DNA of 64,000 bases from Mytilus galloprovincialis (lineage: Eukaryota; Mollusca; Bivalvia; Mytilida; Mytilidae). Both the position numbers and the translations under genes were made by a program. The stretch is taken from the NCBI RefSeq assembly GCF_965363235.1, contig NC_134844.1, forward strand, positions 73,339,497-73,403,496, given 5' to 3'. This document shows, in pieces, positions 19,788 through 58,364 of the stretch. The number at the start of each line of letters is the position of its first letter. Positions within the stretch are counted from its first letter, which is position 1. The notes beneath the pieces were generated by a model that saw only the letters and a list, made by a program, of their open reading frames with translations, was not told the DNA's origin and did no database searches.

Positions 19788-19829
19788 GAAAAAAATATAC
19801 CAAATAAGTTGTCCCTTGAAAGCGAAAAA

Positions 19830-23560: not shown

Positions 23561-23679
23561 GTCTAGTCATTCTAGCCAAAATATGACCAAACCTCAAACT
23601 AATTGCAACAGAATGTTCTTCTAGTTTTCCAAGCTGGTTTAGGTGTACTGTTGAACATAAAAAAAATCGAGAATGTTTG

Positions 23680-24125
23680 GATGAAGGGAAATTGTTAATT
23701 TTGGGTGAAAACCTTGATTTGCCGTGACTCAAAAACAAAAATAGCAACTTGCATTATTTTTAATGAAGTCAATAGATCTTATTATAGTAATGATTTATTT
23801 AAACGTTCATGAACTGCAAAGATCAGGAAATTGAAAATTTTGGGTGAAAACCTTGGATTTTGATGAAAAATCGCCGAAAACTGGAAATTTGCCGTGACTA
23901 AAAAACAAAAATAGCAACGGACACAATTTTTAAGAAAGTCATTAGATCTTATTATAGTTATGATTTATGTAAACGTTGATGAACTGCAAAGATCAGGAAA
24001 TTGAAAATTTTGGGTGAAAACCTTGGATTTTGATGAAAAATCGCCGAAAACTGGAAATTTGATGCGACTAAAAAACGAAAATAGCAACGTACATAATTTT
24101 TAATCAAGTCAATAGATCTTATAAC
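23680..24125. repeat. 170-bp subterminal tandem repeat of the Academ-like element
   Basis: The unit GATCAGGAAATTGAAAATTT, TGGGTGAAAACCTTGG, ATCGCCGAAAACTGGAAATT, AATAGCAACG, TAGATCTTATTATAG, GAACTGCAAA recurs with a period of 170 bp (GAACTGCAAA at 23811 and 23981). There are about two and a half copies, the first internally deleted. Confidence 0.85.
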
Positions 24126-24496
24126 AATAATAAAGAAATATAAACTATGATGATTTTTGAAGTATAGGAAGTGATAATTTTGGGTGAAAATGTTAGTATT
24201 TTTGATAAAAACTGGGAATTTATGTTTTCTTAATAAAAATCAAATTATATCATGAGTCTTCAAATTAATTTTATATATGTGAAGTGTTTAGATGGATCAA
24301 ATAATGACCAATTCGTAAAATCAATAGATCATATAACAACAATAAAAAACGATTGACCGGTATTATACTTATTTTTAAACCAAAATATTTACTTTATATG
24401 ATAACAAAACCATGCAATTGTTTTACCGAAACCCCTTAATTATGCTTATTATGGTTTTTGCGTATTCTACATAAATCTTTAGAAGTTGATTGTCAC

Positions 24497-27400: not shown

Positions 27401-28914
27401 ATATTTCGCTCATAATTCATGGTTGCGAACTCTGCCTGTAATGATTGTTTAGATTGCATTTTATAATATTCTATGTTAATTTTTGCTAGGTCAGAGACTT
27501 CCTTTAGTGTGGGAGACAGCCTAGGGACAGCTTTGTCAAGTCTGAATCCTGGAGTGACAGCTGCAATCATGCCCATACCATGAAATGTTCCATGACCATC
27601 TAAAGTTCTCAGATTATGGTCTACGTTATCAGCTATGTACTGAACGAAAGTACCATTCCCAAACTGTGTGTTGGTTCTGTCATGAGCAGCAGCAGCAGCA
27701 TTAAGTTCAAATCGTTGAACCTCTGTGTAGGAAGAAGCGAAACCAAGAGTGTTCAAAGTGTCCAATAGAAATCTTGATCCAAAGTGATGGTGCATTTGTA
27801 CACTGAGGGCAATTTGTAGCGGTGCAATAAGTGTTCTTGGTCGGGAAGCCTGAATAATAGCTTGACCAACAGATGCAACTTTAACAGAAGAGTCGTTTTG
27901 ACTAAATAATGCACGTAGTAATGTTTGTAACGAATCTGGGACAAATATAATGTTTTGCTCTGAGTTTATATCAACAGAAGACGGATACACAGCTTTTGAA
28001 TCTTTAATACTCATAATATCAGCCTTTATTAACTTAGCTGCTGTTTCTATCATCGATAGTTTTTCCTCTTCTGGACTCTTAGATGATGGTCTTCTGTAAA
28101 ATTCGTTCAGTATAGATGATGCTGTTCTCCTGAATGTGACTATATTCGGCTTTCCGTTTACTTCCGTGATGATGATATCAGATCCAAAATAAGTTTGCAG
28201 TCTCTTTTTCATGTGCACCACACTATACGCCTTATCTCCACAAATGTCTTCGATAGCCTGAACAAGATCGCTTACGGATGCAAGTTCGTCTTGCGTTTCT
28301 TCCAATTCTCTAACTATTTGCAGGAAAGCTTTCTCTGATGAATCTTCTTTTGGTCGTCCTGGTCTCGTTCGTTTGACCTCTTTGTTTGCTTGCTTCGAGA
28401 CGGAGATTTGCTTACCAGTTCTAAAATTAACACTACATGTTTGATGGTATATTGCGTCTGCCGCGTGCAAATCTGATGGTGCAATGTTGAGCCTCCTCAA
28501 AACGATTTCGGACCATTCATCATTTCTTTCTTTGCAGATGTTTCTAAGGGTGTTAGAAAAATCTGTTGTCCTGACAGGAAACACGTCGATTCCCCTTTTG
28601 CTCTCTGAAAATTTTGCAAAACATCCACAAAATAAACAGTTCTTCTGGAACTCAAAATCAGGAGTAGAAGATCGTAAGTCACGAGTTGGCTCGGTTATCG
28701 ATACATCCTTTTCTCGCATGTCCTTCTTGATTGAGTTAGCATTAATGTAATCACGTCGGCATTTCTGATGAACTTTTTGTCCAGGAGTTGTGACGATTGT
28801 ATCATTTCTGGTTTGGCTGGTCCTATTAACCGTGTTACATCCTTTTTCTCTTAGTTGTGTTATTTCTTCACCATTTGTTAGAGACACCCGACAAAAAACA
28901 CAAGCATCCATCAT
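24497..28914 (-). pseudogene. Academ-like transposase with XPG/PIN-like nuclease and CXC domain, interrupted
   Basis: A single intronless frame of about 1470 codons, broken by an in-frame TAA (27364-27366) and a one-base shift near 25346-25352. In order: two Cys/His clusters (CVFC..VHQKC near residue 5-55; CLFC..YHQTC near 93-165), a core with ADNVDHNLRTLDGHGTFHG (about 425), FDQPLYWKA (about 580) and SDLVIEQVLMRSLKTTGG (about 860), a possible DDE set; then an XPG/FEN/PIN-like nuclease (DGGSLLHRIHW, VVFDGYASGPDT, GEDTDLLVLL, AISGCDTTS), and finally a CXC/tesmin-like zinc domain (CNCKTNCDTKRCTCRKNGLE). An XPG nuclease beside a transposase is the hallmark of Academ elements. The DDE assignment is inferred from the motif pattern only. 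An intact copy would move its own element; this one has decayed lightly. Confidence 0.75.
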
Positions 28915-29149
28915 TACCTAAAAAAAAGAAGATCAAACTGTTAAGATGAGATTCAATGATTTTGATTTTGCTTTCATTTTATTTTTATCATATAAGATTT
29001 GTTTTGAATACAATATTAAAAAAGATATATGTTGACTTATAACCAATACATTATTCCGATGTAGTATCTGTTCTCAACTGAATTGTATAATGGTATTTTT
29101 GTTGAATATTAATTTCCCTTTTTTAGTTGATTAATAAATATTCATTTTT

Positions 29150-29262
29150 TATCATTTGATTTTTTTTTAAATTGTCTCATCTCCTGTCCACCCTATATTT
29201 TTTTTTTATTTCATCCTAGCCCCCATACTAACATGAAAAAATAAATGGTAGCTCCATAACAC
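29150..29262 (-). repeat. End of an element with GGTAGCTCC tip, short copy
   Basis: CTCCTGTCCACCCTATATTT, TTTCATCCTAGCCCCCATAC and AATAAATGGTAGCTCCATAA match the right border at 58550-58625. It lies between the coding frame and the right end of the Academ-like element, so it is either a nested insertion or shared end sequence. Confidence 0.55.
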
Positions 29263-29985
29263 GATTTGTCTGCATCAATTTTGTATTTAATTATCGGTAC
29301 AACTTCATTTTTCCATGAATTAAATTTAGTTCGATTGTAACTTTTTTGGCACTATCGGCGTTCCATAGTTTTTTTTTCGTCAGCAACTCCTGGCAACAAG
29401 AATAAAATTTCCTTATTACGGGACTGTTTAATGTATGTAATGTTTATACTGTAGTCCAAATATAAAAAAACAGAGCTGTTTTGTATGTGATTTCTGGTTT
29501 AGAAACCTCGGCAAACCGAAATGAGCTCATTTCTGCCGCGTACTATATTTTGACATTTCCCGTGTATCTTACGCCTTTTAAAAACATCCAAAATACCTTG
29601 CATGGTAGCGTTATCTCTTAAGAATGTTAAATACGTATAAAACTTTTATATATAAGTTTTATATTAACTTACCAGAATGAAAAGGATGGAACCTAGATGC
29701 GTCGTCTGCAGTTGACCATTACGAGTTGTCTCCCATATCGTCATTCTTAATCTACGGGCGCCATATCTTTCCATAATATTTGAAGTAAAATCCAGATTGT
29801 TTTAGGGCTAAAATTGACGACTTTCCCCTATTTCGATTTTTCTCGATTTTTGATATGTTTCTTATACGTTATATTTCTCACGAATTCCACAAAAAACATT
29901 TCTGTTGCAATTAGTTTGAGGTATAACCATAGAATGACTGGACTAGATATTAAAACGTTGAAAATAAGTGATATGAACCTCCGAA

Positions 29986-30430
29986 GTTTATATAATAGCA
30001 TTACGGTAAATAGAATAATTGAAATTCAGTTAATTTAGTGTGGGAGGCTATTTAATCCACTTTCTGAGTGTGTATTACATAATGTTACAATGTAACAAAC
30101 CTATCAAACACACCGTAAAAAATAACATTATCTCCCCTGGAAATGCTTAACAACAGGACACAAAAAACTGCTACCTTTTTTGCTCTATATCACATAATTA
30201 TGAAAACACATTACATAGGTAGGGAATATTGTGCTTGTGTACGCGTTTGAATGTGTAGGTGGCACACTCAGAACGATCGTCTCTAGATTTTTTTTTTAAT
30301 TCGTCCCGGCCTTTCCGGGTTCACGTAGCAACACGTTTCTTTCCTTTCCAGCTATTCCTGATTATCAATTAATCCAAAACATGCATTTATCACAAAGCAA
30401 CAACTATTAAACAACTCACCTATACCAATG
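29986..30430. other. Non-coding gap
   Basis: Sequence between the right end of the Academ-like element and the LINE ORF1 fragment. I see no gene or clear repeat. Confidence 0.4.
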
Positions 30431-31659: not shown

Positions 31660-31914
31660 CTTTAGTCTCCTTGTAAATTTTGATCCAAGTAGCAATGTAG
31701 AGGATAACGTTAACGACGACGACGACAAATGTCAGAATAGTCAGGTAGTAGACCCATAGATCTGCGCCTTTAATGGCATCAAAATGGCAGCTGCAAAGAA
31801 AAGAAAATTGTTAGACATTTAAAATCAACCCACAATATAACATCAATTGCTTCCTGTAATAATCATTTGAAGATACACACAATACATTTGATTACAATCT
31901 GGCTTTTTAACATA
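31660..31914 (-). pseudogene. Second copy of the receptor last-exon start, cut off by LINE sequence
   Basis: Exon part 31790-31660 (CHFDAIKGADLWVYY, TM5, KIYKETK) with its acceptor site and 120 bp of intron. It is almost identical to 2129-2383. The exon stops after AAGGAGACTAAAG, where LINE 5' sequence begins, so TM6 and TM7 are missing here. It lies 1.1 kb downstream of the receptor's first exon and in the correct phase for it (TT|C). Confidence 0.85.
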
Positions 31915-40006: not shown

Positions 40007-40017
40007 ATGGGCGTCAA

Positions 40018-40270
40018 GTTGGTTACCTATTCCCTATTCCCTATTCGTTACCTATTCCCTATTCCCTATTCGTAACCTATTCGTTACCTATTCGTTACCT
40101 ATTCCCTATTCCCTATTCGTTGCCTATTCGTTACCTATTCCCTATTCCCTATTCGTTGCCTATTCGTTACCTATTCCCTATTCCCTATTCGTTGCCTATT
40201 CGTTACCTATTCCCTATTCCCTATTCGTTACCTATTCCCTATTCCCTGTTCGTTACCTATTCGTTACTTA
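40018..40270 (+). repeat. Terminal minisatellite of the palindrome, left
   Basis: Alternating CCTATTCCCTATTCCCTA and TTCGTTA/TTCGTTGCC words make a low-complexity tract that is mirrored at 46860-47065. Frames such as 39993-40301 (YSLFVAYSLPIPYSLF) only translate this repeat. Confidence 0.95.
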
Positions 40271-41164
40271 TTTGATTTTTAATATCCTTCCCCCTTTTTA
40301 ATTATGGCATGGAAAAGTTTAATATGGCTGCCATGGAAACGGCACAATTGTGAAAAAAATCTGTTTTTGGTTTTTGGTGAACTGTTTGGATATGCTTCAA
40401 CTCAGAATCATCATATTTTAAAACAATGTAGGTGCCCACTATATACAGGTGTTGGATGACTTTGGCGATCATTGGAACTATTATGTTGCTATGGAAACTA
40501 CACCAAAATTTAAAAATTTTCAAAATGCTCAAAACTTCATGAAACTTCACAGTAATGATGAGCAACAATGGTAGATGTGGCATTTGAAGTTGGAATTTCC
40601 AAAATAGGTCTTGTTACCATGGAAACAATGCAAAAAGGTCAAAAATTTCAAAAATAAGAATTTTGAGTAAACTGGATGAAACTTTACAGGAATGGTAACT
40701 GGCATAGGCAGAGTTGGATTTTGAAGTTAGAATTTTCAAAATGGCCGCCGTAACCATGGAAACAGCAAAAATATCAAACATTTCAAAATGTTCAAACTTA
40801 ATGAAACTTTGCAAAAATGTTACTAGACATCTGTAGATGCTCTCTTTGACTTTGGAATTGTCAAAATGGCTGCCGCTCACCTGGTAATAGGGGGAAGGGT
40901 GCCATACGTTATTGCTAGCAATTACAAATCTAGTTGTTAATACTCTTACATATGGTAATAGTTCTAAATTTGTTGAGATAAAATGATCTTTTTATGACCT
41001 ATTTATATGTGTTTGTGCTCAACCGATCCTTTTACTTCATGTTCGATAAGCATTTGTTCCTTACTTGTTTTTTATACGTTCTACCTTTTAACTGCTTTAT
41101 GTCCGTATGTTTGAAGATGGATCTTGGTTCGACGGGATGAAATCACCGTGTTAGCGCTTGCATA

Positions 41165-41490
41165 AAAAAGAAGATGTGGTATGATTGCCAATGAGACAAC
41201 ACTCCACATTAGACCAAAATGACACAGAAATTATCAACTATAGTGTACTGTACGGCCTTCAACAATGAGCATAGCCCAAACCGTGTAGTCACCTATAAGA
41301 GGCCCAGGCATGACAACCTCATACAATTCAAACAACAAAATTGACCGCCGTATTTCATATACAAAAAAATAAACGGAAATATGTAACACAAAAACAAACA
41401 ATAACTACTTAATTTCAGGCTCTTGTCTAGGGAAAGGCACATACTAACATAATGTGGTGGAGTTAAACATGTAAGCAGGGTGTACATCGT
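41165..41490 (+). repeat. Full-length copy of the 'TACGGCCTTCAAC' repeat inside the palindrome's left arm
   Basis: AAGATGTGGTATGATTGCCA, ATGAGACAACACTCCACATT, GTACGGCCTTCAACAATGAG, GTCACCTATAAGAGGCCC, GCTCTTGTCTAGGGAAAGGC and GGAGTTAAACATGTAAGC in order. The right arm lacks it, so it appears to have inserted in one arm only, after the palindrome formed. Confidence 0.8.
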
Positions 41491-41559
41491 TTCGGAGCAT
41501 GCTATAACCTTGTTTAATTCGTTCGATCACTCACTTATAATTCGCTTATAATACGCGTA

Positions 41560-44500
41560 TCTTACGTTGCACCTTTTAAAACATCGTTTTCAATTGTTTT
41601 GTTGTCTCTGGTGGAAGATTTGGGCTCTTAGAGGTGATATAACTCTATAAGTGCATTTGTATCCGTTCCAGCGCTCGGAAAATACCCTGTTACCTATTCG
41701 TTACTTATTCGCTTTTAAAAAGTTTGTTGTACGTTGCACCTTTTAGAAAAGAATTTTCAATTAAGTTCATATCTCTGGTGGTAATAATGTGTTCTTAAAG
41801 ATGAAATACCCCTATTAGCACATATGTACTCGTTCCAGCGCTCGGATAATACCCTGTTACTTATTCGTTCCTTATTTGCTTTTAATGCACGAGGTATACG
41901 TTGCACCTTGAAATAAATCGTTTTTTAATTGTGTTCATGTCTCTGGTGGTAACAATGTGTTCTTAGAGATGAGATGACCCTATTAGAGCGCATGGACCCG
42001 TTCAAGCGCTCGGTTAATATTCTGTTACCTATTCGTTACCTATTCACTTATAATACGTTTGTTGTACGTTGCACCTTTAAGAAAAGGATTTGTAATTGTC
42101 TCCATGTCTCTTGTGGTAACAATGTGTTTTTAGAGATGAAATTACCCTATTAGCGCGCATGTACCCGTTCCAGCACTCAGTAAATACCCTGTTACCTATT
42201 CGTTACCTATTCACTTATAATAGGTTTGTTGTACGTTGCACCTTTTAGAAAAGGATTTTCAATTGTGTCCGTGTCTCTGGTGGTAACAATATGTTCTTAG
42301 AGATGAAATGACCCTATTAGCGCGCATGTACCCGTTCAAGCGCTCGGTTAATACCCTGTTACCAAATTCGCTACCTATTCATTTATAATACGTTTGTTGT
42401 ACGTTGCACCTTTTAGAAAAGGATTTTCAATTGTGTCCGTTTCTCTGGTGGTAACAATATGATATGTTCTTAGAGATGAAATGACCCTATTTGCGCGCAT
42501 GTACCCGTCCAAGCGCTCGGTTAATACCCTGTTACCTATTCGTTACTTATTCGCTTTTGATACGTTTGTTGTACGTTGCACCTTTCAAAAAAGGATTTTC
42601 AATTGTGCCCATGTCTCTGGTGGTAACAATGTGTTCTTAGAGATGAAATTACCCTATTAGCGCGCATGTACCCGTTCCAGCACTCAGTTAATACCCTGTT
42701 TCTTATTCGTTCCTTATTTGCTTTTTATGCACGAGGTATACGTTGCACCTTGAAATAAATCGTTTTTTAATTGTGTTCATGTCTCTGGTGGTAACAATGT
42801 GTTCTTAGAGATGAAATGACCCTATTAGAGCGCATGAACCCGTTCCAGTGCTCGGTTAATACCCTGTTACCTATTCGTTACCTATTCACTTATAGTACGT
42901 TTGTTGTACGTTGCACCTTTTAGAAAAGGATTTTCAATTAATTTCATATCTCTGGTGGTAATAGTGTGTTCTTATAGATGAAATACCCCTATTAGCGCGT
43001 ATGTATGCGTTCCAGCGCTCATTTAATACCCTGTTTCTTATTCTGCCCTTATTTGCTTTTTATGCACGAGGTATAAGTTGCACCTTGAAATAACTCGTTT
43101 TCTAATTGTGTTCATGTCTCTGGTGGTAACTATGTGTTCTTAGAGATGAAATGACCCTATAAGAAAACGATTTATTTCAAGGTGCAACGTATACCTCGTG
43201 CATAAAAAGCAAATAAGGAACGAATAAGTTACAGGGTATTAACTGAGCGCTGGAACGGATACATACGCGCTAATAGGGGTATTTCATCTATTAGAACACA
43301 TTATTACCACCAGAGACATGAACACAATTAAAAAACGATTTATTTCAAGGTGCAACGTATACCTCGTGCATAAAAAGCAAATAAGGAACGAATAAGAAAC
43401 AGGGCATTAACTGAGCGCTGGAACGGGTACATACGCGCTAATTGGGGTATTTCATCTATTAGAACACATTATTACCACCAGAGATATGAATTTAATTGAA
43501 AATCCTTTTCCGAAGGTGCAACGTACAACAAACGTACTATAAGTGAATAGGTAACGAATAGGTAACGAATAGGTAACAGGTTATTAATCGAGCGCTGGAA
43601 CGGGAATATGCGCGCTAATAGGGGTATTTCATCTATAATAACACATTATTACCATTAGAGATATACATTTAATTGAAAATCCTTTTCTAAAACGTGCAAC
43701 GTACAACAAACGTACTATAAGTGAAAAGGTAACGAATAGGTAACGAATAGGTAACAGGGTATTAACCGAGGGCTGGAACGAGTACATGCGCGCTAATAGG
43801 GTTATTTCATCTCTAGGAACACATTGTTACCACCAGAGACATGAACACAATTGAAAATCATTTTCTAACAGGTGCAACGTATAAAAAAATGTATTATAAG
43901 CGAATAGGTAACGAAAAGGTAACGAATAGGTAACAGGGTATTAACCGAGCGCTCGAACGGGTACATGCGCGCTAATAGGATCATTTCATCTCTAAAAACA
44001 CATTGTTACCACCAGAGACGTGGACACAATTGAAAATCCTTTTCAAAAAGGTGCAATGTACAACAAACGTATTATAAGTAAATAGGTAACGAATAGGTAA
44101 CAAATAGGTAACAGGGTATTAACCGAGCGCTGGAATGGGTACATGCGCTCTAATAGGGGTATTACATCCATAAGAACACATTATTACCACCAGAGATATG
44201 AATTTAATTGAAAATCCTTTGCTAAAAGGTGCAACGTACAACAAACGTACTATAAGTGAATAGGTAACGAATAGGTAACGAATAGGTAACAGGGTATTAA
44301 CCGAGCGCTGGAATGGGTACATGCGCTCTAATAGGGGTATATATCTATAAGAACACATTATTACCACCAGAGATATGCATTTAATTGAAAATCCTTTTCT
44401 AAAAGGTGCAACGTACAACAAACGTTCTATAAGCGAATAGGTAACGAATAGGTAACGAATATGTAACAGGGTATTTACCGAGCGCTGGAACGGGTACATG

Positions 44501-46330
44501 CTCGCTAATAGGATAATTTCATCTCTAAGAACACATTGTTATCACAAGAGACATGGAGACAAGTAAAAAATCCTTTTCAAAAATGTGCAACGTACAACAA
44601 ACGTATTATAAGTGATTAGGTAACAGGGTATTAACCGAGCGTTGGAACGGGTACATGCGCGGTAATAGGGTAATGTCATCTCTAAGAACACATTGTTACC
44701 ACAAGAGACATAAAGACAATAAAAATCCTTTTCTAAAAGGTGCAACGTACAACAAACGGATTATAAGTGAATAGGTAACGAATAGGTAACGAATAGGTAA
44801 CGAATAGGTAACGAATAGGTAACAGGGTATTAACCGAGCGCTGGAACGGGTACATGCGCGCTAATAGGGTCATTTCATCTCTAAGAACACATTATTACCA
44901 CCAGAGATATGAACTTAACTAAAAATCCTTTTCTTAAAGGTGCAACGTACAACAAACGTATTATAAGTGAATAGGTAACGAATAGGTAACAGGTTATTTA
45001 CCAAGCGCTGGAACGGGTACATGGGCGCTAATAGGGTCATTTCATCTTTAAGAACACATTGTTACCACCAGACTTATGAGCACAATTGAAAATCCTTTTC
45101 TCCAAGGTGCAACGTACAACAAACATATTAAAAGTGAATAGGTAACGAATAGGTAACGAATAGGTGACAGGTTATTAACGGAGCGCTGGAACGGGTACAT
45201 GCGCGCTTATATGGTCATTTCATCTCTAAGAACACATTGTTACCACAAGAGACACGACACAATTAAAAAATCCTTTTCTAAAAGGTGCAACGTACAACAA
45301 ACGTATTATAAGTGAATAGGTAACGAATATGTAACAGGGTATTAACCGAGCGCTGGGACGGGTACATGCGCGCCAATAGGGTATTTTCATCTCTAAGAAC
45401 ACATTTTTACCACCAGAGACACGGACACAATTGAAAATTCTTTTCTAAAAGGTGCAACGTACAACAAACGTATAATAAGTGAATAGGTAACGAATAGGTA
45501 ACGAATAGGAAACAGGGTATTTACTGAGCGCTGGAACGGATACATACGCGGTAATAGGGGTATTTCATCTCTAAGAACACATTATTACCACTAGAGATAT
45601 GAATTTAATAGAAAATCCTTTTCTCAAAGGTGCAACATACAACAAACGTATCATAAGTGAATAGGTAACGAATAGGTAACAGGGTATTAACCGAGCGCTG
45701 GGACGGGTACATGCGTGCTTATAGGGTATTTTCATCTCTAAGAACACATTTTTACCACCAGAGACACGAACACAATTGAAAATTCTTTTCTAAAAGGTGC
45801 AACGTACAACAAACGTATTATAAGTGAATAGGTAACGAATATGTAACGAATAGGTAACAGGGTATTTACTGAACTCTGGAACGGGTACATACGCAGTAAT
45901 AGGGGTATTTCATCTAAAAGAACACATTATTACCACTAGAGATATGAATTTAATAGAAAATCCTTTTTTCAAAGGTGCAACGTACAACAAACGTATCATA
46001 AGTGAATAGGTAACGAATAGGTAACGAATAGGTAACGAATAGGTAACAGGGTATTAACCGAGCGCTGGAACGGGTACATGCGTGCTAATAGGGTATTTTC
46101 ATCTCTAAGAACACATTTTTACCACCAGAGACACGGACATAATTGAAAATTCCTTTCTAAAAGGTGCAACGTACAACAAACGTTTTATTTAAGTGAATAA
46201 GTAACGAATAGGTAACGAATAGGTAACAGGGTATTAACCGAGGTCTGGAACGGGTACATGCGCGCTAATAGGGTATTGTCATCTCTAAGAACACATTTTT
46301 ACCATCAGAGACACGGACACAATTGAAAAT
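41560..46330. repeat. 170-bp satellite array, inverted about 43155
   Basis: Each unit holds TTGTTGTACGTTGCACCTTT, AGGATTTTCAATTGTG, CTCTGGTGGTAACAATGTGT, GAAATGACCCTATTAGCGCG, ACCCGTTCCAGCGCTCGG, ATACCCTGTTACC and one to five copies of TATTCGTTACC. I count about 10 units forward (41604-43118) and 18 in reverse (43309-46304). The switch falls inside a unit at about 43155. Confidence 0.9.
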
Positions 46331-47074
46331 TTTAAAATTTTTGATATTTTTCCTGTTTCCATGGTTACGGCGGCCATTTTGAAAATTCCAACTTTAAAAT
46401 CCAACTCTGCCTATGCCAGTTACCATTCCTGTAAAGTTTCATCCAGTTTGCTGAAATTTCTTATTTTTGAAATGTAGGACCTTTTTGCATTGTTTCCATG
46501 GTAACAAGACCTATTTTGGAAATTCCAACTCGAAATGCCACATCTACCAATGTTGCTCATCATTACTGTGAAGTTTCATGAAGTTTTGAGCATTTGGAGA
46601 ATTTTGAAAATTTTGGTGTAGTTTCCATAGCAACATAATAGTTCCAATGATCGCCAAAATCATCCAACACCTGTACATGGTGGGCACCTACATTGTTTTA
46701 AAATATGATGATTCTGAGTTGTAACATATCCATGTAACAGTTCACCAAAAACCAAAAACTGATTTTTTTCAAAATTGTGCCGTTTCCATGGTAACGACAG
46801 CCATATTAAACTATTTCATGCCATAATTAAAAAGGGGGAAGGATATTAAAAATCAAATTAGTAACGAATAGGTAACGAATAGGGAATAGGGAATAGGTAA
46901 CGAATAGGCAACGAATAGGGAATAGGGAATAGGTAACGAATAGGCAACGAATAGGGAATAGGGAATAGGTAACGAATAGGTAACGAATAGGGAATAGGGA
47001 ATAGGTAACGAATAGGGAATAGGGAATAGGTAACGAATAGGGAATAGGGAATAGGTAACCAACTTGACGCCCAT

Positions 47075-47365: not shown

Positions 47366-47368
47366 TAA

Positions 47369-47409
47369 GGGACCGGTCAAAATTTCTTGATGCATGGGAC
47401 CGGTGCAAA
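47369..47409 (+). repeat. Left terminal inverted repeat of the 10.9-kb element
   Basis: 41 bp, identical to the right end. GGGACCGGT occurs twice in the same orientation, at positions 1-9 and 28-36 of the TIR, and contains the palindrome ACCGGT, a plausible protein-binding pair. Confidence 0.97.
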
Positions 47410-47490
47410 CTGTCATGGGACAAGCACTTTTTGCAGTGTTTACAGGAATGGGACTCAATGTTTTTTCATTATTGGCAAGCATGGGACATG
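47394..47490 (+). promoter_or_regulatory. Left subterminal ATGGGAC motif cluster
   Basis: ATGGGAC occurs four times in about 95 bp (near 47395, 47415, 47447 and 47482), mostly as CATGGGAC. The same word recurs at the right end near 58109, 58141 and, inverted, at 58220, with an ATGGGAT variant near 58176. Such subterminal clusters often bind the element's transposase; that role is inferred. Confidence 0.7.
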
Positions 47491-48458
47491 AACTTTTTGA
47501 AACAATGTCTGTATATGAAAAACAATTTATTTGATAAATCTATAACAAACAAAAATAACATCATGAACATCTAACAATGTGAATTTAACAGTTCCAACGT
47601 GGCAAATTCATTTTCAAGATTTAAAGAACAGTGAAGGCAACAAAAACAAATTTTGAAACAGAATAAACATGAAAAAATACTTTGATATAAAATTAAAAAA
47701 ATATGTAAAAATTTGATTAGATATTTTACATGTATAACTGTTTAACAAATGTAAAAAACATGAATTCATGAATAGTGTTTCTGCACAAAAAAGCATGATT
47801 GTCAAATATAAATCTGTCCTCCCATAAAGCAGAGTTGTCTCCCATTTACCAGAGTTGTCTTTCCTGACAGATGGTATTTTTCTATTAAACATCACTTTTA
47901 TTTTTTACTAATTAATTAATTTGGCAACCTAATGATCCCATCAGAACAACAAATCTTATGCCATGTCACAGAAAAATGTTTTTTTTTTTTATCTGAGACC
48001 AGTATCATGATGATATTTGTGTGTTTAATATGAAAAAATATTTGCAGAAAAGCCAAAATTTTTGTACATGTATAAATATATATTAAAATTCCTTCTCTAA
48101 AGAGTAGATAACTGTGAAAATGAGAGATAACTCGTTTTATGGGAAGACAGAATAGTGAGAACAATGTATGACATAAAATAAAATCAACAAAATATGATAA
48201 ATCTATTGGCACAATCTGAAATCCTACAAGCACTTATGTGTAAAATTTATTAGGTAAAAGAACAGAGAAAAAAATAAAAATAACAAAAAGCTTAACCATC
48301 AAATAAATAATAATAACAAAAGGCTTATTAAACCATCAATAAAATATGAAGATGAGGTAAAAATAATTTGAAAGTAGACTGACTAGACACATGTATAAAG
48401 TAAACTCATATAAACAATAACAATTCTCACTAAACTGTTTCCTCATTATAATATTGGA

Positions 48459-50304
48459 CTATTGGTATAAATACTGTTCAATGAATTCAAGGGCCAGCTC
48501 TCGGAAACAACCCTCTTTCACCATGTGGGCCAAACAACACTTGTCAAATTCACTAAGGGTATCTGAAAAAATGTTTTCGATAAATGTACATGTATCTTCT
48601 ATTTCGGTAATCTGATACGCCCCCATTTCAGGAGTGAAACATTCTGACATGAGATGACCACCAAATAATTCATAGATCTCTTTGCATCTATTTAACTTCC
48701 TGCACTTTGTTCTTGCTTCAACTTTCCACTTGTTCTCTCGTTTTCTTTGTTTATCAGTTCTTTTTTTCCCTCTCTTGTTCCAACTAGTTACTTTACACTT
48801 TTGTTTTAGTTCAACAAGTGTCTTATTAAACGGCTTTATCTCATCTGCAATGAAAATGTTCATCTTGTGTATTGTGTCTTCGTTGAAATTGTGTTGACTT
48901 TGCCTTCCTGATTTTAGTCTTCCATTCTGACAAAACAATGAATCATCATCTTTACTTATTTTTTCTATTTCAGTTACAACTTTTTGTTCTAGTTTTGAGG
49001 CATTGTCGATTAATCTTTCTAAATTATCTACATCATGTGGTAAGGGAAAGTAATCCTCCTTTAAGTATTTTCCTGCACATGCTTCATTTTCACTTTTGAA
49101 ATATGCCAACTTTGACTGAAAATTTCCAGAGTTTGAACTGTATTTTAATTGTCGGTTCCTTTCAACAATAAATGTGTTGTGAAAAATGGTGATATTACCA
49201 CAATATGGCCAAAAAGATTCGTACAACGACTTCAAAACGGTATTGTAAAATTGTCCAGTTTTTCTTTTCGGATCAGGGATATAGCCAAATTTTTTGTTCA
49301 TCCATGGCTCGATAGTTGTACTTAACTTTGTTGCTCCACCAGACTGTTTAGCCTCAACTAAAAATAGTAAATATCAAAATATACATTTGTTATTCAAGCC
49401 AATGTATTAAAACACATCAAATTATTATTAAAATGCACATTTACATACATGTACTATAGATTAAAAAATGAACTTTCAAATCAACCTGGTTATCATACTG
49501 AATTTATTAAATCGGCGTTCAGTAAAGATATTGGCTATTATGTGTGTTGCGGGACAGCCTACATGATTTGTATTAAGTAGTTGATATATAGCCATTTCAA
49601 ATCGACAGGATAACGGAGTACTTCTTTTGCTCACTCGGTAGCTAGTCACCAAGAAGTCCCAGGTTTGAGACTTAGCAGTGACAGGGAATTTTGTAGTGAG
49701 TTTAATGCTCTACCATGTGTATTTGAAATTTGAATATGTAGTGCATAGAATCCAATTAGTAGCTTAATGTTGTGTATATCATGTATATATTTCACTTCTA
49801 TCAGTCACAGCAAATTTAAAAAGTTATCGTATGACTGAGGAATCTCTGATGGACAGATGAACTGATTATTATAGGGCTCTGTCGTTGCCAATTTAATTGT
49901 GAGAACATATTAAATAATACACGCGTTTAACAGTTTAAAATTATGAAAGGGGGTGGAGCACAAGTACGTGTATATATATTGTCTGGTATTTAATAAAAGC
50001 TCTTGGTTGAAATTTTGAATGATACTAGGGCTTATATGGAAAAGTTCCAGGTAATTGTATAGACATGTAAAATTACTAAAGTTACATGTACATTTTTGTA
50101 CTTACCGATATTAGAGCTGAGAGTGACATTTTGGGTAGAGCTACTGGCAGTACTGCTAGATACGTGTTGTTGTAAGTTTTGGTGTTTTGCTGGTGGATCA
50201 CCACAGTATCCGCAACTCATGGCATCTGATGCCACAAATTCTGTGCAGTCGCATTCTTCGACTCGGCAATTTCCTCTGTCGATGCCCCGGTCGTCCAGGC
50301 CCAT
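48459..50304 (-). CDS. Accessory protein of the 10.9-kb element, unknown function, two exons
   Basis: Exon 1 is 50304-50106 (donor GTAAGT) and exon 2 is 49357-48459 (acceptor TATTTTTAG); the phase-1 join is seamless and gives about 364 residues. The N-terminus has a Cys/His cluster, CDCTEF, then CGYCGDPPAKH (residues about 18-41), a possible zinc site, followed by a Ser/Thr-rich linker. The middle has GYIPDPKRKTGQFYNTVLKS and FWPYCGNITIFHNTF. A strongly basic stretch (KRGKKRTDKQRKRENKWK, about 270-290) could bind nucleic acid or act as a nuclear signal. An AATAAA on the minus strand (48251-48246) fits polyadenylation. I do not recognise the family. Its divergent pairing with the DDE gene inside shared TIRs suggests a helper in transposition. 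Confidence 0.75.
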
Positions 50305-50700
50305 CGTATTTACCGGAAGCTATGTATGAATGACTAAAACTTAACCAATCCGGTAAAGTCCGAATATCCGTATTAAAATGAAATCAGATAAAATCATTCA
50401 GTATATAAAATATCGGCTTTAAATATCTGTAATAGTTTGTATTTCTAATTCAGTTGCGTTATAATATTTACAGTACACTATATATTTAAGTATATAGAAT
50501 TAAATGTTACCCGATTTTCATTCGGAATTCGGACTTCCCCCGAGATGGACTTTGCATTTTGTAATGTTCTCGACATTTCCGCTAGAGGAGAACCCGAACT
50601 TTTATAGAATATAACCATGATGTTTATTATATACACATGAATGATGCAAAGTTCTAGATATGTAAACACAAAACACGATTAGTAGGTTTCCACCTTGAAA
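50305..50700. promoter_or_regulatory. Divergent promoter region of the 10.9-kb element
   Basis: This 396-bp spacer separates the start codons of the two head-to-head genes, so both promoters must lie here unless there are longer leaders. No convincing TATA box is seen among the AT-rich words. The minus-strand frame at 50478-50669 is not supported. Confidence 0.5.
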
Positions 50701-53700
50701 ATGGCCTCAACCGATCAATGGAAAGAAAGCAATACACACGAACAGATCCCCTCTTTAACACCACACTCCATTTCATTTTCTGAGAAAAGAGCAGTTCAAA
50801 GGAAGTTAACAAAAGTCACTTCAGATAGTACAATTCACACATTTAACAGGTCATTACAGACTATACCCGTTAATGATAATTTATCAAAACTCAAAAGGTT
50901 GAGGGATTCAACCAAGTCTATTGTACTTCATAACAAAATCGATGCCTTGTCTTGTGTTTTGGAGGACCTTTTATATCAACATAATGATTTAGAAAGTATT
51001 GGACCAACAATTTATGAAAGATATACCAGCAAAAGGGCAAATGGAATCATAGATTTTCAAGTTGGTCTAGACATATATGCTGACTTTATGGGAGCTCCAT
51101 TATATGTTAGGAAGGATGATTTATCGACTAGATTCAAAGACGATCTTTTGGATCCTGTTCATGGTGTAAGATGTATTGTATATAATCCACCTAACTATGA
51201 TAAAAAGTATATTATATTGGATAGCGATGGAGTGGACATTTTGGGTATATTGCAGAGAATAACTGATGATTTTGAAGATGCAGAAAATATCAGGGTACGT
51301 GTACGTGAAAATATTGACTATGGTTATATAAACACAGCTTTATTAACGTTGGATACTGAGCATGATCGAAGTATTGTCAAATGTATTCTTGCAAAATTGA
51401 TTGGACGAAGTGATTTGATTGCTGTAGGAATAAATCCAGATATTGCTTTAAAAAAACTTGAAAAGTCCCGACAACTTTTTGCAGAAATGTCCAATGCAAA
51501 AATAGCAGCTCAAGACATGATTAACTTAAGGTTGGAAACAAAAATTAACAAATGCAAAGACAATCTCAATGAAATTGACAAAAAAATTGAATCAAAATCA
51601 TTATCATTGATGCGTGAGAAAGATTTCTGTGCCAGAAAAGAAATACTTGAAGAACAGCTGGATGCAAATCAAAAGTTGTTAAGCAAAGAGACAAGTTATG
51701 ACCAAAAAAAATATGGCTATTGCGTCAAAAGATTAACTGAGAAGCTTATAAAAGAAAACAGAATTAAAGCAAGAAGACTTGGTGCTGGAGCAAGACCAAT
51801 GCTTGACTCTGATGATGAAGAATTTATAGCCAATGCCATCGAGAGCAAAAGTTCAGCACATGGACGCAGACACGACACAGTTCTCTATTTAAATCACAGA
51901 GTAAAACTTGAAGATTTATTGTCTATTGCCAATTATAATTTGATTAGACGAGGAAAGAAGTTGTTGAAGTCAGCAAAAACAGTACACCTTAGGGCAAGGC
52001 CTAGAAAAATCAACACAATTGAAGGCAAGAGACATAAAGGTATTTACTCTATAATAGTACAGTGTATGAACACACATAAAATCTGTGTTTCTTCATCATG
52101 TTCTTGTTTGTGTAACTAAAAACATGCACAATAAGGAAAAAACAAGAAATCGTAAATCAATTAACATAGACAAATTACATGGACATTTTGTACAATGACA
52201 CAGAGACAGAAACAACACAAATAGCAAGAACTTAATAAAATATGAGCAACACAGACCCCAACAACACAAGGCACAATGTACACCCAGGTGCTCTTAATGA
52301 GAAAGTGATGTCTGCCACTAAATAGCAACTTGAAATGTTGATCATGGTAAAATCTGGAAAATACAACATGCCGTACAACACATACAAGTAAATATATGGA
52401 AGTGTGACTATAAAATTTGGAACATGATCAAAGTGGATAAGGCAACTCCAAGATCACCCCATATAAATAAATCATTTGTTTTAAGTAGTTGTGATTTAAT
52501 CTCTTTTATTTATATTTATCATGTTTATGTAATCTTGACTGATCCCAAAATGAAATGTAAATACTATATTGTTAGAATGCAGATTATATAATGTCCATAA
52601 TTATGATACAATGTACATTACAGGTAACTGGCTCTTTTGTACCAAAAAACCCCCAAAGACTGAGGACCACAGTACTGAGCTCACCCATCATCAAAGGGCG
52701 CATGTAAAACTAAACAGAGAAGACATGTTCAGCACCAATAGCTTGTTCAGATATTCAAGTCTGGACATCTCATTTGATGATAAAGCTTATATCAGACCAG
52801 GCACAGATGGTAAGTCAACTATTCTTTATAGCACTTGTGAGCCAAGGCAGGTTCAGGCGGGGGCTTGGCAGGTGTGCACCTCCTTGGGCACTAAAAATAT
52901 ATTTTTTTCCTGGAAAATCTTAATTCTTCGTCAAACGAAATGAATTCCAAACAATATTATAACACACTTTCCCTGTCCTAAGCATATTTTCTTACCATTT
53001 TCAGTCGGATTGAGAGATACAAAGGCTGGTAAAATACTCACCTTGACAGACGAAAGCAGACAAAGAAAGCTACCTCAGCATGACTTTGCAACACCAGAGG
53101 TGTACCAGTCACCTAGCTCATTTAGATTAATGACATGGAAAACTGAAACAATACAGGGTAAGTTGTATAAATATCATTTAGGGGAAGACAGATCTTTTTC
53201 TGGAAGCTGGGATATGGCATTAGAGGATAGAGAAACCAATATGTATTAAAAATCTTGTCGAAATTTCGGTGTTTGGTGGGTGCCCTATAGTAATCACTCT
53301 GTCCGTCCGTCTGTCTAGCCTTTCATTGTCGTACGATAACTCAAATTTGCTTTGACCGACTTAAAAAAAAATGTATACACATTATTTAGCAACACTAGAG
53401 GAGGCTTTCTTTCGATTTTGGAGCATTTTTATTTTTTGTTTCCAAGTTATTGGACTTAGGCCATCATGATGTGTCAGTTTTCTAGTTTGATATGCGTTTT
53501 TTTTTATGTATTTTTTTAGGTAAGGAGAGATTGATTAAAGACCATGACCAAAGTTGTGTTGTTGTCCGTCCAAAATTCTATGTAGGAAGCTCAGGGTGTG
53601 TATGGGGTAGTGATTTGTTGCGTCTCCGCTATGAAAAACCTGATTTATTTGAAATGTCTCCTGAACGCGGTGAGTCAATACAAGATAAACAGTTTTATGC

Positions 53701-56700
53701 GATGGTCCATGATGCTGCATTTTATGTCTTTGACAGTACCACTGATGATGACTTAACATCTTTATTATCTGGACAATCAAATTATACACATTATGAATCA
53801 GAAAGGATAACACATTTTGCTCGTCGTCTTGAACGTGTGTTAGCAAATTTTCCCAATACAGGACCTGATGAACTAATTGACAAACTTAAAGAAGCTTTAC
53901 AGTTAATTGAAAAACTGAATCAAGATCTTAAAGGTGAAAACATGAGAATTTGTAACAGGAATTTGAAAACTTTGAGAGATCAGTGTGAAGAAATCATTCG
54001 TTCTATTGATTCTATGAATATATATCCTGTGAAGCCAGTTATTTCTGAATATACTGATGGCGGACCTGGAGTTGGGGTTAATAATACTGCAGTTAAATTC
54101 AGATTTGCTGAAATGTGTCGTATCCAGAATTCTGTGAGAAGAGTCAGAATCCATAGGGCCAGTGGAGACTCGGCACAAAATGAAGCAGAGAGAACAAACA
54201 GTGCTATTGGTAAGATTGCTACCAAATGCTATATTTGTATTTATTGTTCAGCAACATATATTCAATGTAGAACGTAACCAAACGTTAGTGTGCAATATTC
54301 CATGATATTGCACCCATAATTGACGTCATCGATGTTGAAAATCAAATTTTTGGCATTTCAAAGGTTTTGCTATACAATAACAGGGTAATTGCATGAAAAC
54401 TGGTGAATATTATCTCTCAAGGAATATTAATTGCACTCACAAGCTCGTGCAATATAATATTCTAATTGTGACAACATTCAGCAATATTCATGTATAAATT
54501 ACCCTATATTATATATATATAATTTATAATATGTAATATATTGGAATTTATGTTTAATTCAATTTATGTCCTTTTGGGAATAAAAAAAAGTAAAACAGCA
54601 GTAAACAGAAGGCTGAGCCGACCAGTCTTTGCTCTAACTCCTAAATGCCGCGTGCTTTATATCGAAGAAGCAGCAAATACCAATTTTAAAGTCTTTGGTT
54701 TGATCCGGCCGGGGATCAAACCCACTATAAAGATCATTTGTAGACAAATAGTATAAACCAAATGGAACAAGATCCAGATTAATGGTTTAAGCTACTGCTA
54801 GGTTATGATTTTCATTATTTACCTTCAACAATACTTTATATGATTCTCTTAAATTCTCTTCTTCTTTATAAATGTTTTAGGCTTATATTGCATTGAAAAT
54901 TGAATATCATTAAGAGGACATCAATTGTAAAAGTAAATTTTTCATCATTTGTAAATTTATAGGTGATGCATTAGTGGATGGTGCGACTATATGTTGGGAA
55001 TATTTCAAACCCCTTCATGGTTTGTCTCAGGAGGATCAGGACGCCATGACACCCAGTGATCTTGATAAACACAAGGCTGCAATGATGGAAAAAAATGCTT
55101 GGGCAGTTGCAGAAGTTGTGTCCTTGAGAATAGATGATGCCAAAGGACCTGCAGGATTTATTCAGGCATATGTGACAGAACACCCTGGTACATTGTCTAT
55201 ATACATCATGCACATATATTAAAAAGAATTTATGAACACATCTATATTGAAACAAACGTTCCAACCTACATGTATTAGAGCATTGGATAAAAACCGTAAT
55301 TTTTATATTTGTACATGCAAAACAAAATCAGTAAATATTGGGTAAATATCAATGAGACAACCACCCAATCCTTATAAACAATTCAGCGTTCCAAAAGCAT
55401 TCTAATTAGGGGTCAGTCAGCAAACTTCAATGGCCAATGAGAAAAAAATCACTGAGCCAAGTGACACTATTAAGGCCGGAGACCTTGAGGTGTTGACAGT
55501 TGGTCGATACACATACACCATCAAATCACTGATATAGTGGCACTACTCTGTTTAATGGTACTACAAAAAAAAAAATTTGTAAAAAGATAATTTCCTGCTT
55601 TCCTTTGTATTCAAGAGTGTTCATAGCTACCATTCTTAATACAAAAGAAAGTAGAATGAAATGTCTTAACAGAAAAAAGTTACAGCAGTACCACTGAAAA
55701 GAGTGGTACCACTATGTTGGTGATCAGTCATGGTTACACTCTTTCTGTACTGTAGAAAACCTACATGTATGGGAAATCATACGTTCTATTTTCACTTTTA
55801 ATTTGCACCTTTAATACATGTACATATCCTAAATATAAGCCTGATTAACCAATAAATAATCAATTACCAATAATGTTTGTCTTATTTCAGAGGACCAGTT
55901 TTTCTGGAATGGCAATTACCTCAAAAGATATCATGAGTCTTCAAAATCTGCCAAAGCAACGGTACCAGGACATGGTTACTTCAAAAAGATTTATGAATTT
56001 ATTGATCAGCACTGCGAAGTAGGTGAACTTTATATTGAATACAGAAAATATCGTTGTGAACAGTCACATGGGACCAAGTGTGAGTACTGCTTGAGATCTC
56101 CAGTGAATGATTTATATGGACCAAATTTGGTTAAACCAGTACCTAGGCCATATCCAGATTATGAAAGACTTCCTGATTTGCATTATTTAGTACACAGTAA
56201 CACTCCCGTACAAATCGATAACGTTGAGCGGGAACCAGATGACTTTCAGCCACGTGCAAACATTAAGAAATTGTTTGCCTTGGGAGAATTGTCGACATCT
56301 AACCATGCTAGTGTATCTCAATTTAGCAAGAAGTATGTCCTTCCAGATGATCTTGTTATGAAATATGTCTTGCATCTTGAAACACTAAAGGCTGATAAGG
56401 AAAAACGGTCCATTGCAACACAAAAAAAGAGACATGATGTGACCTGTAAAACATATGATGACTATAATTGGGTGGAGATGTTTGAAAATAACTTTATAGA
56501 CAAACAGACAATGTCGGTATTAGACAAATACATACAGCATCATAATCTTGGAAATTTCACTGTAAAACCCGAAAAAGTGAAAGCTGTTAAGCAATCTATT
56601 GCTATGCATTTGATAGCAGATAACAATCAGGTCAATGAAATTCAGTCAGACGAGGATGATGTAATCATTGAATTATTTGATCCAGACACAGAAACAGAAA

Positions 56701-56813
56701 CAGACAGTAGTTCCAGTAGTTCTGAGAGTGAAAGGGAAATTGAAAACTTACAAATCTCTACTAGATCGAGACGTGTCAGACTACCCAAAAGATATGACGA
56801 CTATGTAACCTAA
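50701..56813 (+). CDS. Putative DDE/RNase H-fold transposase of the 10.9-kb element, six exons
   Basis: Exons 50701-52039, 52624-52809, 53005-53157, 53520-54209, 54963-55187 and 55891-56813 join in frame through five phase-1 GT-AG introns to give 1171 residues. I take ATG 50701 rather than the TTG at 50695. Residues about 260-365 look like a coiled coil. Candidate catalytic residues: D498/D499 (SFDDKAYIRPG), D739 (TDGGPGVG) and E781 or E783 (SAQNEAERTN), followed by IGDALVDG. This pattern resembles uncharacterised invertebrate proteins with TDGGPDH and NxAER motifs. A Cys motif (CEQSHGTKCEYC) lies near residue 910 and an acidic Ser-rich tract near 1120-1145; the end is basic. AATAAA lies at 57046-57051. 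The frame is open throughout, so the protein may be functional. Transposase function is inferred from motifs and the TIR setting. Confidence 0.8.
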
Positions 56814-58080
56814 AGTTCAGTGGTCTAAAAATCTCTATTTTACATAAGAATAGATAAACATGTACACATTCAAAATTTACAAAAAAAAATGATAGCTTAC
56901 TGTAGAAAATATAGGGATATGGAGTATTAAAGTGTGCTTGTTTTTCAAAAAAGTTCTTTGAAAAGTGTGAATATTTGGTCTTTTTACAAAGGGAAAATTC
57001 TGAAAATTTGTGAAAAATCTCCATTTCATATGCTTTAGAAGTTTCAATAAAAGGAAATGTGGTGTATAAACCAGCCATACTTTTAAGAAAATTGACAAAA
57101 TGTGTGATTTCCATGTACTTTCTATACAAATTATCTCCCTTGGATTGAAACAGAAATTTTGAAAATGGCCATGCAATTAAAAGTGCTACTTCAACTATAA
57201 TTAAACAAAATGAATTGTTTTAATGTTTCTGTTTTATTTTGTACATGTAGACCATAATTCCTTAAATAAAACAAAAATCTAACATGCTCAGAAATGATGT
57301 TCAGTGATGACCCCCTGAACTACCTTAATCATAAATGTTATTATCATGATTATGCAAATTCAACAGACATTGTAGAATGAAAACTCTGGCTGTAGAAAAA
57401 GAATGTTTGTGGAAATTTAACAAATACAGTAGCATACTACCAAAAGAAATGATTGGAATATTCATTCAAAGGTCACAACAAATCTGGAACCCACACCCAA
57501 TAAGCTCTGAATAGCCCAGATATAAATATATAATCAATCAAGCTGCATATATGTTGAGATAGTAAATTTTACTTTTTTCCCACTTTTAAAAAAAATGTTT
57601 AAAATACAATATTGTTGTAAGTGGAAGTTGGAGATGTTCACTTCTTTAATTTTGATGCTATTTTCACATTCCTCTCGTTTTAAATTTGAAAATTTAACTG
57701 TCTCGAGATGTTCACTTCTTCTGGTATGACTATTCAAATAATGGGGATTGTTTTATTCTAAGCAGAATTTTTTTTTATATTTTTGTAATTTTTTTTTTTG
57801 GAAAATTTACCGACCCACTGTTAAATTAGAATAGTCAGATTCTAAATTAAGCTGCAATTTTTTAAAAAAAATGTATTCTACCATACAGTTCATACATGTT
57901 GATTGTTTAATATTGCATGTATCATTTATTATAATCAATAACATATTGTCATCTGTTTGGGCTCCTGTGTTGGCAATAACATATGCTTATGTATTGTTTT
58001 GTTTACTTTATAATAGCAAAATAAATACAGTTCACACATAGTAGCATTATTTTTCAGCTATCCAAATACATTGTATCCAC
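56814..58080. other. 3' flank inside the 10.9-kb element
   Basis: Holds the 3' UTR and poly-A signal (57046) of the transposase gene and then AT-rich sequence. AGATGTTCACTTCTT occurs twice near 57632 and 57707. Minus-strand frames here show no recognisable domain. Confidence 0.5.
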
Positions 58081-58104
58081 AACTTTGATCATGTTTTTGT
58101 GCTT

Positions 58105-58210
58105 TAACATGGGACACACACTTTTTTACTAGGTAAAGTGCATGGGACAAGCATATTTTTATTCTGCCAGTAACCATGGGATCAAGAGAATTATTTCAGA
58201 CAATTTTCTT
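58105..58210 (-). promoter_or_regulatory. Right subterminal ATGGGAC motif cluster
   Basis: ACATGGGACACACAC, TGCATGGGACAAGCATA and CCATGGGATCAAG precede the right TIR. The middle one matches the left-side TCATGGGACAAGCAC closely. These are in the same orientation as the left-hand motifs, not mirrored. Confidence 0.65.
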
Positions 58211-58251
58211 TTTGCACCGGTCCCATGCATCAAGAAATTTTGACCGGTCCC
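58211..58251 (-). repeat. Right terminal inverted repeat of the 10.9-kb element
   Basis: Exact reverse complement of 47369-47409 over 41 bp, followed by TAA at 58252-58254. Confidence 0.97.
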
Positions 58252-58364
58252 TAAGAATAAATTGCGACACATGTAAATAAACAATTACATGTGCGAGAAC
58301 ATAAGTATGCTAATTTATGCATTTCCATATACATTGTAAGGTAGTGGTCCCGACCTGTTTAAAG

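What the first reader, a model, noticed from the sequence alone, without database searches (positions are those of the whole stretch)
47369..58251. Unclassified 10.9-kb DNA transposon with perfect 41-bp TIRs and two divergent spliced genes
Seen: identical 41-bp inverted ends, a TAA duplication at both borders, two head-to-head genes, all exon joins in frame, no stop or frameshift. Known: PIF/Harbinger also uses 3-bp TWA targets and two genes, but its proteins differ from these. Inference: a young, possibly active element of a superfamily I cannot name.
Basis: partly seen in the sequence, partly recalled or inferred. Interest (0 to 1): 0.93.

Follow-up and report, generated by a model that had tools for sequence, protein, structure and literature searches.

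The report
Intact, unclassified two-gene DNA transposon
This is a complete 10.9-kb "jumping gene" in a eukaryotic genome, with perfectly matching ends and two intact genes that match no protein family we could search, so it may represent a group of DNA transposons that has not been named.

Summary
Confirmed: 47369-58251 is bounded by identical 41-bp inverted repeats with TAA on both sides. Inside are two divergent spliced genes, 1171 aa (6 exons, +) and 365 aa (2 exons, -), with GT-AG phase-1 introns and no stop.

Whole proteins or parts gave no Pfam match over its cut-off and nothing convincing in NCBIfam, PHROGs or the PDB; seven bacterial DDE profiles gave no hit or one that shuffles equal. 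PIF/Harbinger shares the TWA target, two genes and TIR type, but its two domains were not found. A DDE-like triad (D494, D739, E783) is inference.

Limits: no eukaryotic genome, Repbase or Dfam was searchable, so copy number, host and true novelty stay open. "Young" is supported by simulation; "active" is untested. Best reading: an autonomous cut-and-paste transposon of an unclassified lineage, possibly a new superfamily.

The parts
47366..47368 (.). left copy of the TAA target-site duplication
47369..47409 (+). left terminal inverted repeat, 41 bp; holds two GGGACCGGT boxes 27 bp apart (47369, 47396)
47414..47512 (+). left subterminal array: three 33-bp units beginning (C/A)ATGGGAC (47414, 47447, 47480)
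48459..49357 (-). small gene, exon 2 (includes stop)
50106..50304 (-). small gene, exon 1; codes for an N-terminal Cys/His cluster (C-x4-C-x-C-x10-C-x2-C-x6-H)
   Evidence: zinc-binding is inferred, no Pfam match for this piece
50305..50700 (.). 396-bp spacer between the two start codons, probably a two-way promoter
   Evidence: length, TATA-like strings, common in AT-rich DNA; function inferred
50701..52039 (+). large gene, exon 1 (aa 1-446)
52624..52809 (+). large gene, exon 2; holds the candidate first catalytic Asp (D494)
   Evidence: catalytic role inferred
53005..53157 (+). large gene, exon 3
53520..54209 (+). large gene, exon 4; candidate D739 (TDGGP) and E783 (QNEAERTN); a helical stretch between D494 and D739
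   Evidence: low-confidence model; roles inferred
54963..55187 (+). large gene, exon 5
55891..56813 (+). large gene, exon 6 (includes stop)
58108..58207 (+). right subterminal array: CATGGGA units at 58108, 58141 and 58175 (the third degenerate, 34 bp after the second), same orientation as the left array
58211..58251 (-). right terminal inverted repeat, 41 bp, identical to the left
58252..58254 (.). right copy of the TAA target-site duplication

Best explanation
An autonomous, structurally intact cut-and-paste DNA transposon of a lineage that the searched libraries do not name. Shown: the ends, the TAA flanks, the two open spliced genes, the subterminal arrays. Inferred: the 1171-aa protein is the transposase, with an RNase-H-like catalytic core using D494, D739 and E783 (D-x244-D-x43-E); it and/or the 365-aa protein (N-terminal Cys/His cluster) bind the GGGAC-containing boxes in the TIRs and subterminal arrays, pair the two ends, cut the element out and join it to a TAA/TTA target with a 3-bp stagger, which host repair fills into the TAA copies. 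(The rivals on family membership overlap with this statement, so the odds do not add to one.)
For: Perfect 41-bp TIRs bounding two divergent genes, and TAA on both sides. Both genes open through all exons with canonical phase-1 introns. End-specific repeats: ATGGGA occurs 3 times in 111 bp (left) and 3 times in 120 bp (right), all on the + strand, against 9 in the other 53 kb and 7 in the 10.6-kb interior, both strands counted (the intervals were set after the motif was seen). A matrix from the three left units alone ranks 58108 above, and 58141 just below, its weakest training unit, ahead of every other position on both strands of the window. No Pfam or NCBIfam match reaches a cut-off (NCBIfam saw the 508-aa core and the small protein). 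The best stretch of the large protein against a 30-sequence rve-type profile from bacteria is 750-794 and puts E783 on the profile's catalytic Glu.
Against: Only one copy is known, so the boundaries rest on this copy. The rve-type match is not significant (-1.8 bits; 31 of 500 shuffles do as well), a DDE_3 profile does as well elsewhere in the protein (24 of 500 shuffles equal it, 643-673), and the first Asp is a motif reading by eye. The third right repeat is not among the 16 best matrix sites listed. The single-sequence fold of exon 4 is poor (mean pLDDT 47); that exon lacks the first-Asp region, so it could not show the whole core. No conservation could be measured because no relative was found (best tblastn E-value in fetched loci 0.47).
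Confidence: 0.72

Rival explanations
1. A very divergent PIF/Harbinger (PHIS) element: DDE transposase plus a second DNA-binding protein, 3-bp TWA target, TIR starting with G.
For: TWA target duplication, two genes and a TIR under 60 bp starting with G are the structural traits listed for PIF/Harbinger (PMC4482050, passages).
Against: No DDE_Tnp_4 or Myb/SANT match for whole proteins or pieces (HMMER's filters drop most matches above about 0.1); no hit to a 13-sequence DDE_Tnp_4 profile from bacteria in an unfiltered search; 10.9 kb against an average of about 4.1 kb; the motifs do not resemble Harbinger motifs as I recall them.
Confidence: 0.13
2. An integrase-type (rve) transposase of the Ginger / IS3EU / IS481EU kind with a long insertion and unusual ends.
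For: TDGGP and NEAERTN look like the second Asp and the Glu of rve cores; the best unfiltered profile stretch is in register at E783.
Against: Score not significant (31 of 500 shuffles equal it; hhalign of the core found nothing); no Pfam rve hit; IS3EU ends in TA..TA with usually 6-bp duplications, IS481EU in TNT..AYA or TGT..ACA with about 4, 15 or 25 bp (PMC10045372, abstract and results section); here GGGACC..GGTCCC and 3 bp.
Confidence: 0.14
3. A member of a superfamily already in Repbase for which the libraries used here have no model (for example Academ or Sola, recalled as lacking Pfam models).
For: Repbase and Dfam could not be searched; Academ is common in bivalves (PMC10294476, passages); Repbase's 2015 table lists IS3EU, Academ, Sola, Zator, Zisupton and others (PMC4455052, passages).
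Against: Mean length of curated Academ in bivalves is 5.6 kb; no nuclease or helicase domain, which I recall as typical of Academ, appears in either protein.
Confidence: 0.22
4. Two host genes that happen to lie between a pair of inverted repeats, or cargo moved by another element's transposase.
For: Single copy in the window; no significant transposase domain.
Against: Perfect 41-bp TIRs at the exact TAA borders, end-specific arrays and both genes lying between them.
Confidence: 0.04

Closest known systems
PIF/Harbinger (PHIS superfamily)
   Same: TWA target duplication (TAA here), two genes, short TIR starting with G (traits from PMC4482050, passages)
   Different: No DDE_Tnp_4 or Myb/SANT domain detected; 1171-aa large protein; 10.9 kb; same-orientation subterminal arrays
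NuwaI and NuwaII (PHIS groups)
   Same: 3-bp duplication; TIRs starting GGG (NuwaI) or GG (NuwaII); two genes (PMC4482050, passages)
   Different: NuwaI uses CWG; NuwaII prefers C|TNA|G, while the site here reads G|TAA|G, so the 3' G agrees and the 5' C does not; no Myb/SANT domain
IS3EU/GingerRoot, IS481EU, Ginger (integrase-type transposases)
   Same: Catalytic-looking TDGGP and NEAERTN motifs, E783 in register with the rve Glu, not significant
   Different: Ends and duplication length differ (PMC10045372, results section; Ginger 4-5 bp, PMC4482050); 244 residues between candidate D1 and D2
CMCT clade (EnSpm/CACTA, Transib, Plavaka, Lanisha and others)
   Same: Duplications of 2 to 5 bp (PMC12730594, passages)
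   Different: They mostly end CA..TG and carry C(2)C and H(3-4)H between second D and E; here GGGACC ends and one Cys between D739 and E783 (sequence)

Membership tests
PIF/Harbinger | 3-bp TWA target-site duplication | tested here: met
   TAA at 47366-47368 and 58252-58254; one copy only
PIF/Harbinger | two open reading frames, TIR mostly under 60 bp and usually starting with A or G | tested here: met
   criteria from PMC4482050 passages
PIF/Harbinger | IS5/DDE_Tnp_4-type transposase domain | tested here: not met
   No Pfam match for the whole protein or five pieces of it; no hit to a 13-sequence bacterial profile
PIF/Harbinger | second protein with Myb/SANT domain | tested here: not met
   Small protein: only Mis12 at E 0.27, below cut-off; two pieces gave nothing
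IS3EU/GingerRoot, Ginger, IS481EU | rve-type catalytic core | tested here: inconclusive
   No Pfam rve match; -1.8 bits, 31 of 500 shuffles equal it, but in register at E783
IS3EU/GingerRoot, IS481EU | mostly TA..TA (IS3EU/GingerRoot) or TNT..AYA (IS481EU) ends; 6-bp or about 4, 15, 25-bp duplications | tested here: not met
   GGGACC..GGTCCC and TAA; criteria from PMC10045372 results section
CMCT (EnSpm/CACTA and kin) | CA..TG ends in most cases; C(2)C and H(3-4)H between second D and E | tested here: not met
   Ends GGGACC; residues 739-783 hold one Cys (sequence); criteria from PMC12730594 passages. The second part depends on the inferred D/E positions
KDZ, Plavaka, MuDR, hAT, Tc1/mariner, piggyBac, P | Pfam transposase domain of the family | tested here: not met
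   No match in whole-protein and piecewise Pfam scans; which of these have Pfam models is recalled
Academ, Sola, Novosib, Zator | superfamily transposase (Repbase profile) | not testable with these tools
   No Repbase/Dfam; Zator's presumed bacterial kin DDE_Tnp_ISAZ013 (recalled) gave no hit with a 7-sequence profile
Any cut-and-paste DNA transposon | TIRs, target duplication, multiple copies | tested here: inconclusive
   First two met; copy number not testable, no genome held

The most novel reading that the evidence does not exclude
The element founds a new superfamily of eukaryotic DDE transposons: a D-x244-D-x43-E protein whose long, partly helical insertion lies between the first and second Asp (rather than between second Asp and Glu, where I recall it in hAT, RAG and Transib), a Cys/His-cluster partner protein, and ends made of an inverted TIR plus interior binding arrays that point the same way at both ends, so that the two ends are not equivalent to the transposase.
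Probability: 0.33. Interest if true: 0.75.

Novelty: new variant of a known kind. Interest (0 to 1): 0.58.

Why it matters
If it is a new superfamily, related proteins now left unannotated could be recognised as transposases, and an intact copy gives a direct starting point for an excision assay. The same-orientation end arrays would be a test case for how a transposase tells left from right ends. If it proves to be a divergent Harbinger or a Repbase superfamily, it is still a useful intact reference copy.

Tried and rejected
Homologue searches that found nothing: viral contigs by protein (one search had 2 pattern matches, neither confirmed), by degenerate motifs QNEAERTN, TDGGP-like, HHQRAH-like and KAYIRPGT and by 18 bases of the TIR. 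Two of these motifs matched 48 and 7 viral loci; by tblastn none encodes a relative (best E 0.47 and 4.1). The bacterial genome collection gave 3 chance hits to QNEAERTN. Phage records by tblastn with the 508-aa core: none. These collections hold viruses and prokaryotes, so the absence says little about animals.

Fold route: AlphaFold2 on single contiguous exons gave mean pLDDT 47.0 and 41.6, too poor for a fold search, so none was run. In exon 4 only about model residues 101-140 (helical) averaged above 70.

Profile comparison: a first run read minus-strand loci wrongly and a second misread loci cut by contig ends; one search replaces both and gives the same verdict. One search used hand-picked longer matches, all from bacteria: rve 30 of 43 loci, DDE_Tnp_4 13 of 25, ISAZ013 7 of 19, Transposase_mut 7 of 20, DDE_Tnp_1 12 of 20, DDE_3 11 of 20, IS66 5 of 15. 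The large protein had no hit for DDE_Tnp_4, ISAZ013, mut and IS66; shuffles equalled it in 31 (rve), 82 (DDE_Tnp_1) and 24 (DDE_3) of 500. The small protein scored 4.6 bits against DDE_Tnp_1 at 250-293, a Lys/Arg-rich stretch; no shuffles of the small protein were run. hhalign of residues 441-880 against the rve alignment gave nothing useful.

Empty site: the flanks and their join find no other site in the window beyond a 71-bp, 77% match of the right flank at 14727-14797 and local repeats. A bacterial-type promoter scan of the spacer found 1 site against 2.5 in shuffles and does not apply to a eukaryote. Rfam: nothing in the window. Literature: the listings showed no title or abstract start on this element, and (the string TDGGP with transposase) returned no paper; motifs printed only in figures cannot be found this way. 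Two papers on superfamily definitions were not held. PMC9587614 was seen as outline and abstract only.
Full report
1. The sequence at 47369-47409 and 58211-58251 is the same 41 bases in inverted orientation, with TAA immediately outside each end. The first 20 bases of this end occur elsewhere in the 64-kb window only at 5 mismatches, at two sites. The large gene (+) has exons 50701-52039, 52624-52809, 53005-53157, 53520-54209, 54963-55187 and 55891-56813 and codes for 1171 aa; the small gene (-) has exons 50304-50106 and 49357-48459 and codes for 365 aa. All six introns are GT-AG and phase 1 (for the small gene from its exon-1 length of 199). The start codons are 396 bp apart, and AATAAA strings follow both genes inside the element, which is also expected by chance in AT-rich DNA. 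No transcript evidence was available.

2. Each end carries three units that begin (C/A)ATGGGA. On the left they start at 47414, 47447 and 47480, 33 bp apart; the tandem-repeat finder reports these. On the right they start at 58108, 58141 and 58175, the last degenerate and 34 bp on (the last spacing of 33 printed for the right end rests on a position I had typed one base too low). A weight matrix from the left three alone scores 58108 at 24.4 and 58141 at 19.2 bits, against 20.5 for its weakest training unit and 14.4 for the next best position on both strands of the window; the third right unit is not among the 16 listed. All six point the same way (+), so relative to the element's ends they are not mirror images, although the 41-bp TIRs are. 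The TIR itself contains two GGGACCGGT boxes 27 bp apart. I infer that GGGAC is the core of the recognition motif. Same-direction arrays at both ends would make the two ends different to the transposase.

3. What the proteins are. Pfam at E up to 10 gave for the large protein only CCDC-167 (0.021) and SRP72 (0.065), both below the curated cut-offs, and for the small protein Mis12 (0.27). Seven pieces (five of the large protein, two of the small; not covering all of either) gave only VMAP-M9 (0.28) and DUF3459 (0.24), again below cut-off. NCBIfam, given the 508-aa core of the large protein and the whole small protein, listed only a ribosomal S14 at 0.76; PHROGs, given the same two, listed two unknown families at 0.44 and 0.094. 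The PDB gave nothing below E 0.08 for the core, the small protein or the first exon; the C-terminal part was not searched there. So no named transposase family is detected. By eye, the large protein has SSLDIS (D494), EYTDGGPG (D739) and QNEAERTN (E783), with 244 and 43 residues between. In an unfiltered search with a 30-sequence bacterial rve profile the best stretch is 750-794 and sets E783 on the catalytic Glu, but 31 of 500 shuffles score as well, and a DDE_3 profile fits 643-673 about equally (24 of 500). I treat the DDE reading as inference, perhaps 65% likely. The small protein begins with a Cys/His cluster that could bind zinc (inference).

4. How it probably works. Shown: ends, flanks, genes, arrays. 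Inferred: the large protein is the transposase, the small one a DNA-binding partner; they bind the GGGAC boxes, bring the ends together, excise the element and join it to a TAA/TTA target with a 3-bp stagger.

5. Age. In a simulation of neutral decay over both coding regions and 24 splice bases (400 trials per point), the share staying intact was 5% at 0.5% divergence with indels at a tenth of the substitution rate; with substitutions in the model alone it was 10.5% at 1% and 2% at 1.5%. The TIR identity is a much weaker clock: 44% chance of full identity at 1% change per TIR copy. So the copy is either recent or was recently under selection. Activity is untested.

6. Comparison. PIF/Harbinger shares the target, the gene number and the TIR type (PMC4482050, passages read), but both of its defining domains were looked for and not found. 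IS3EU and IS481EU differ in ends and duplication length (PMC10045372, abstract and results section read). The CMCT clade differs in ends and in the cysteine/histidine motif (PMC12730594, passages). Repbase's 2015 list of superfamilies (PMC4455052, passages) includes several, such as Academ and Sola, that I could not test. In a study of mollusc transposons, 'unknown' repeats made up 10.41% on average and 20.07% in Mytilus coruscus, and DDE elements were sought with profiles of 17 known superfamilies (PMC10294476, passages); an element that none of those profiles matches would stay among the unknown (inference). I recall, from no call, seeing similar uncharacterized proteins in corals and bivalves; this is a lead only.

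7. Verdict. Transposon: about 95% likely. Unnamed in the searched libraries: shown, within the limits above. New superfamily: about one in three, because the decisive collections could not be searched. It is a candidate new variant of a well-known kind, not a new kind of mobility.

Noticed in passing
window 40007-47074: A 7-kb fold-back structure: inverted arms 40007-40795 / 46323-47074 (89% identical, both starting ATGGGCGTCAAGTTGG) around two oppositely oriented satellite arrays of about 167-178 bp units with CCTATTC/GAATAGG runs. It ends about 290 bp left of the transposon.
   Followed up: partly
window 23464-29987: A second apparently unclassified element: three minus-strand ORFs (517, 685 and 292 aa; 24497-28917) with no Pfam match over a cut-off, the last ending in a CXC-like cysteine cluster (E 0.49), bracketed by degenerate inverted repeats (39 nt 82% and 43 nt 79%).
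   Followed up: partly
window 5647-13799: Mutator-like transposase pieces (PF20700, E 1.2e-21 and 2.6e-54), the second ORF also carrying a YqaJ recombinase domain (PF09588, E 1.4e-8).
   Followed up: no
window 17242-19829: LINE-type reverse transcriptase ORF (PF00078, E 3.3e-35) with an endonuclease-like ORF before it, minus strand (the endonuclease reading is by eye).
   Followed up: no
window 2129-2383 and 31660-31914: A 255-bp direct repeat at 99.6% identity, 29 kb apart, with flanks that differ: a recent small repeat copy.
   Followed up: partly
large gene, introns within 52040-55890: All five introns of the large gene, and the one of the small gene, are phase 1, an unusually uniform pattern that could mean a shared origin of the introns; not tested.
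   Followed up: no
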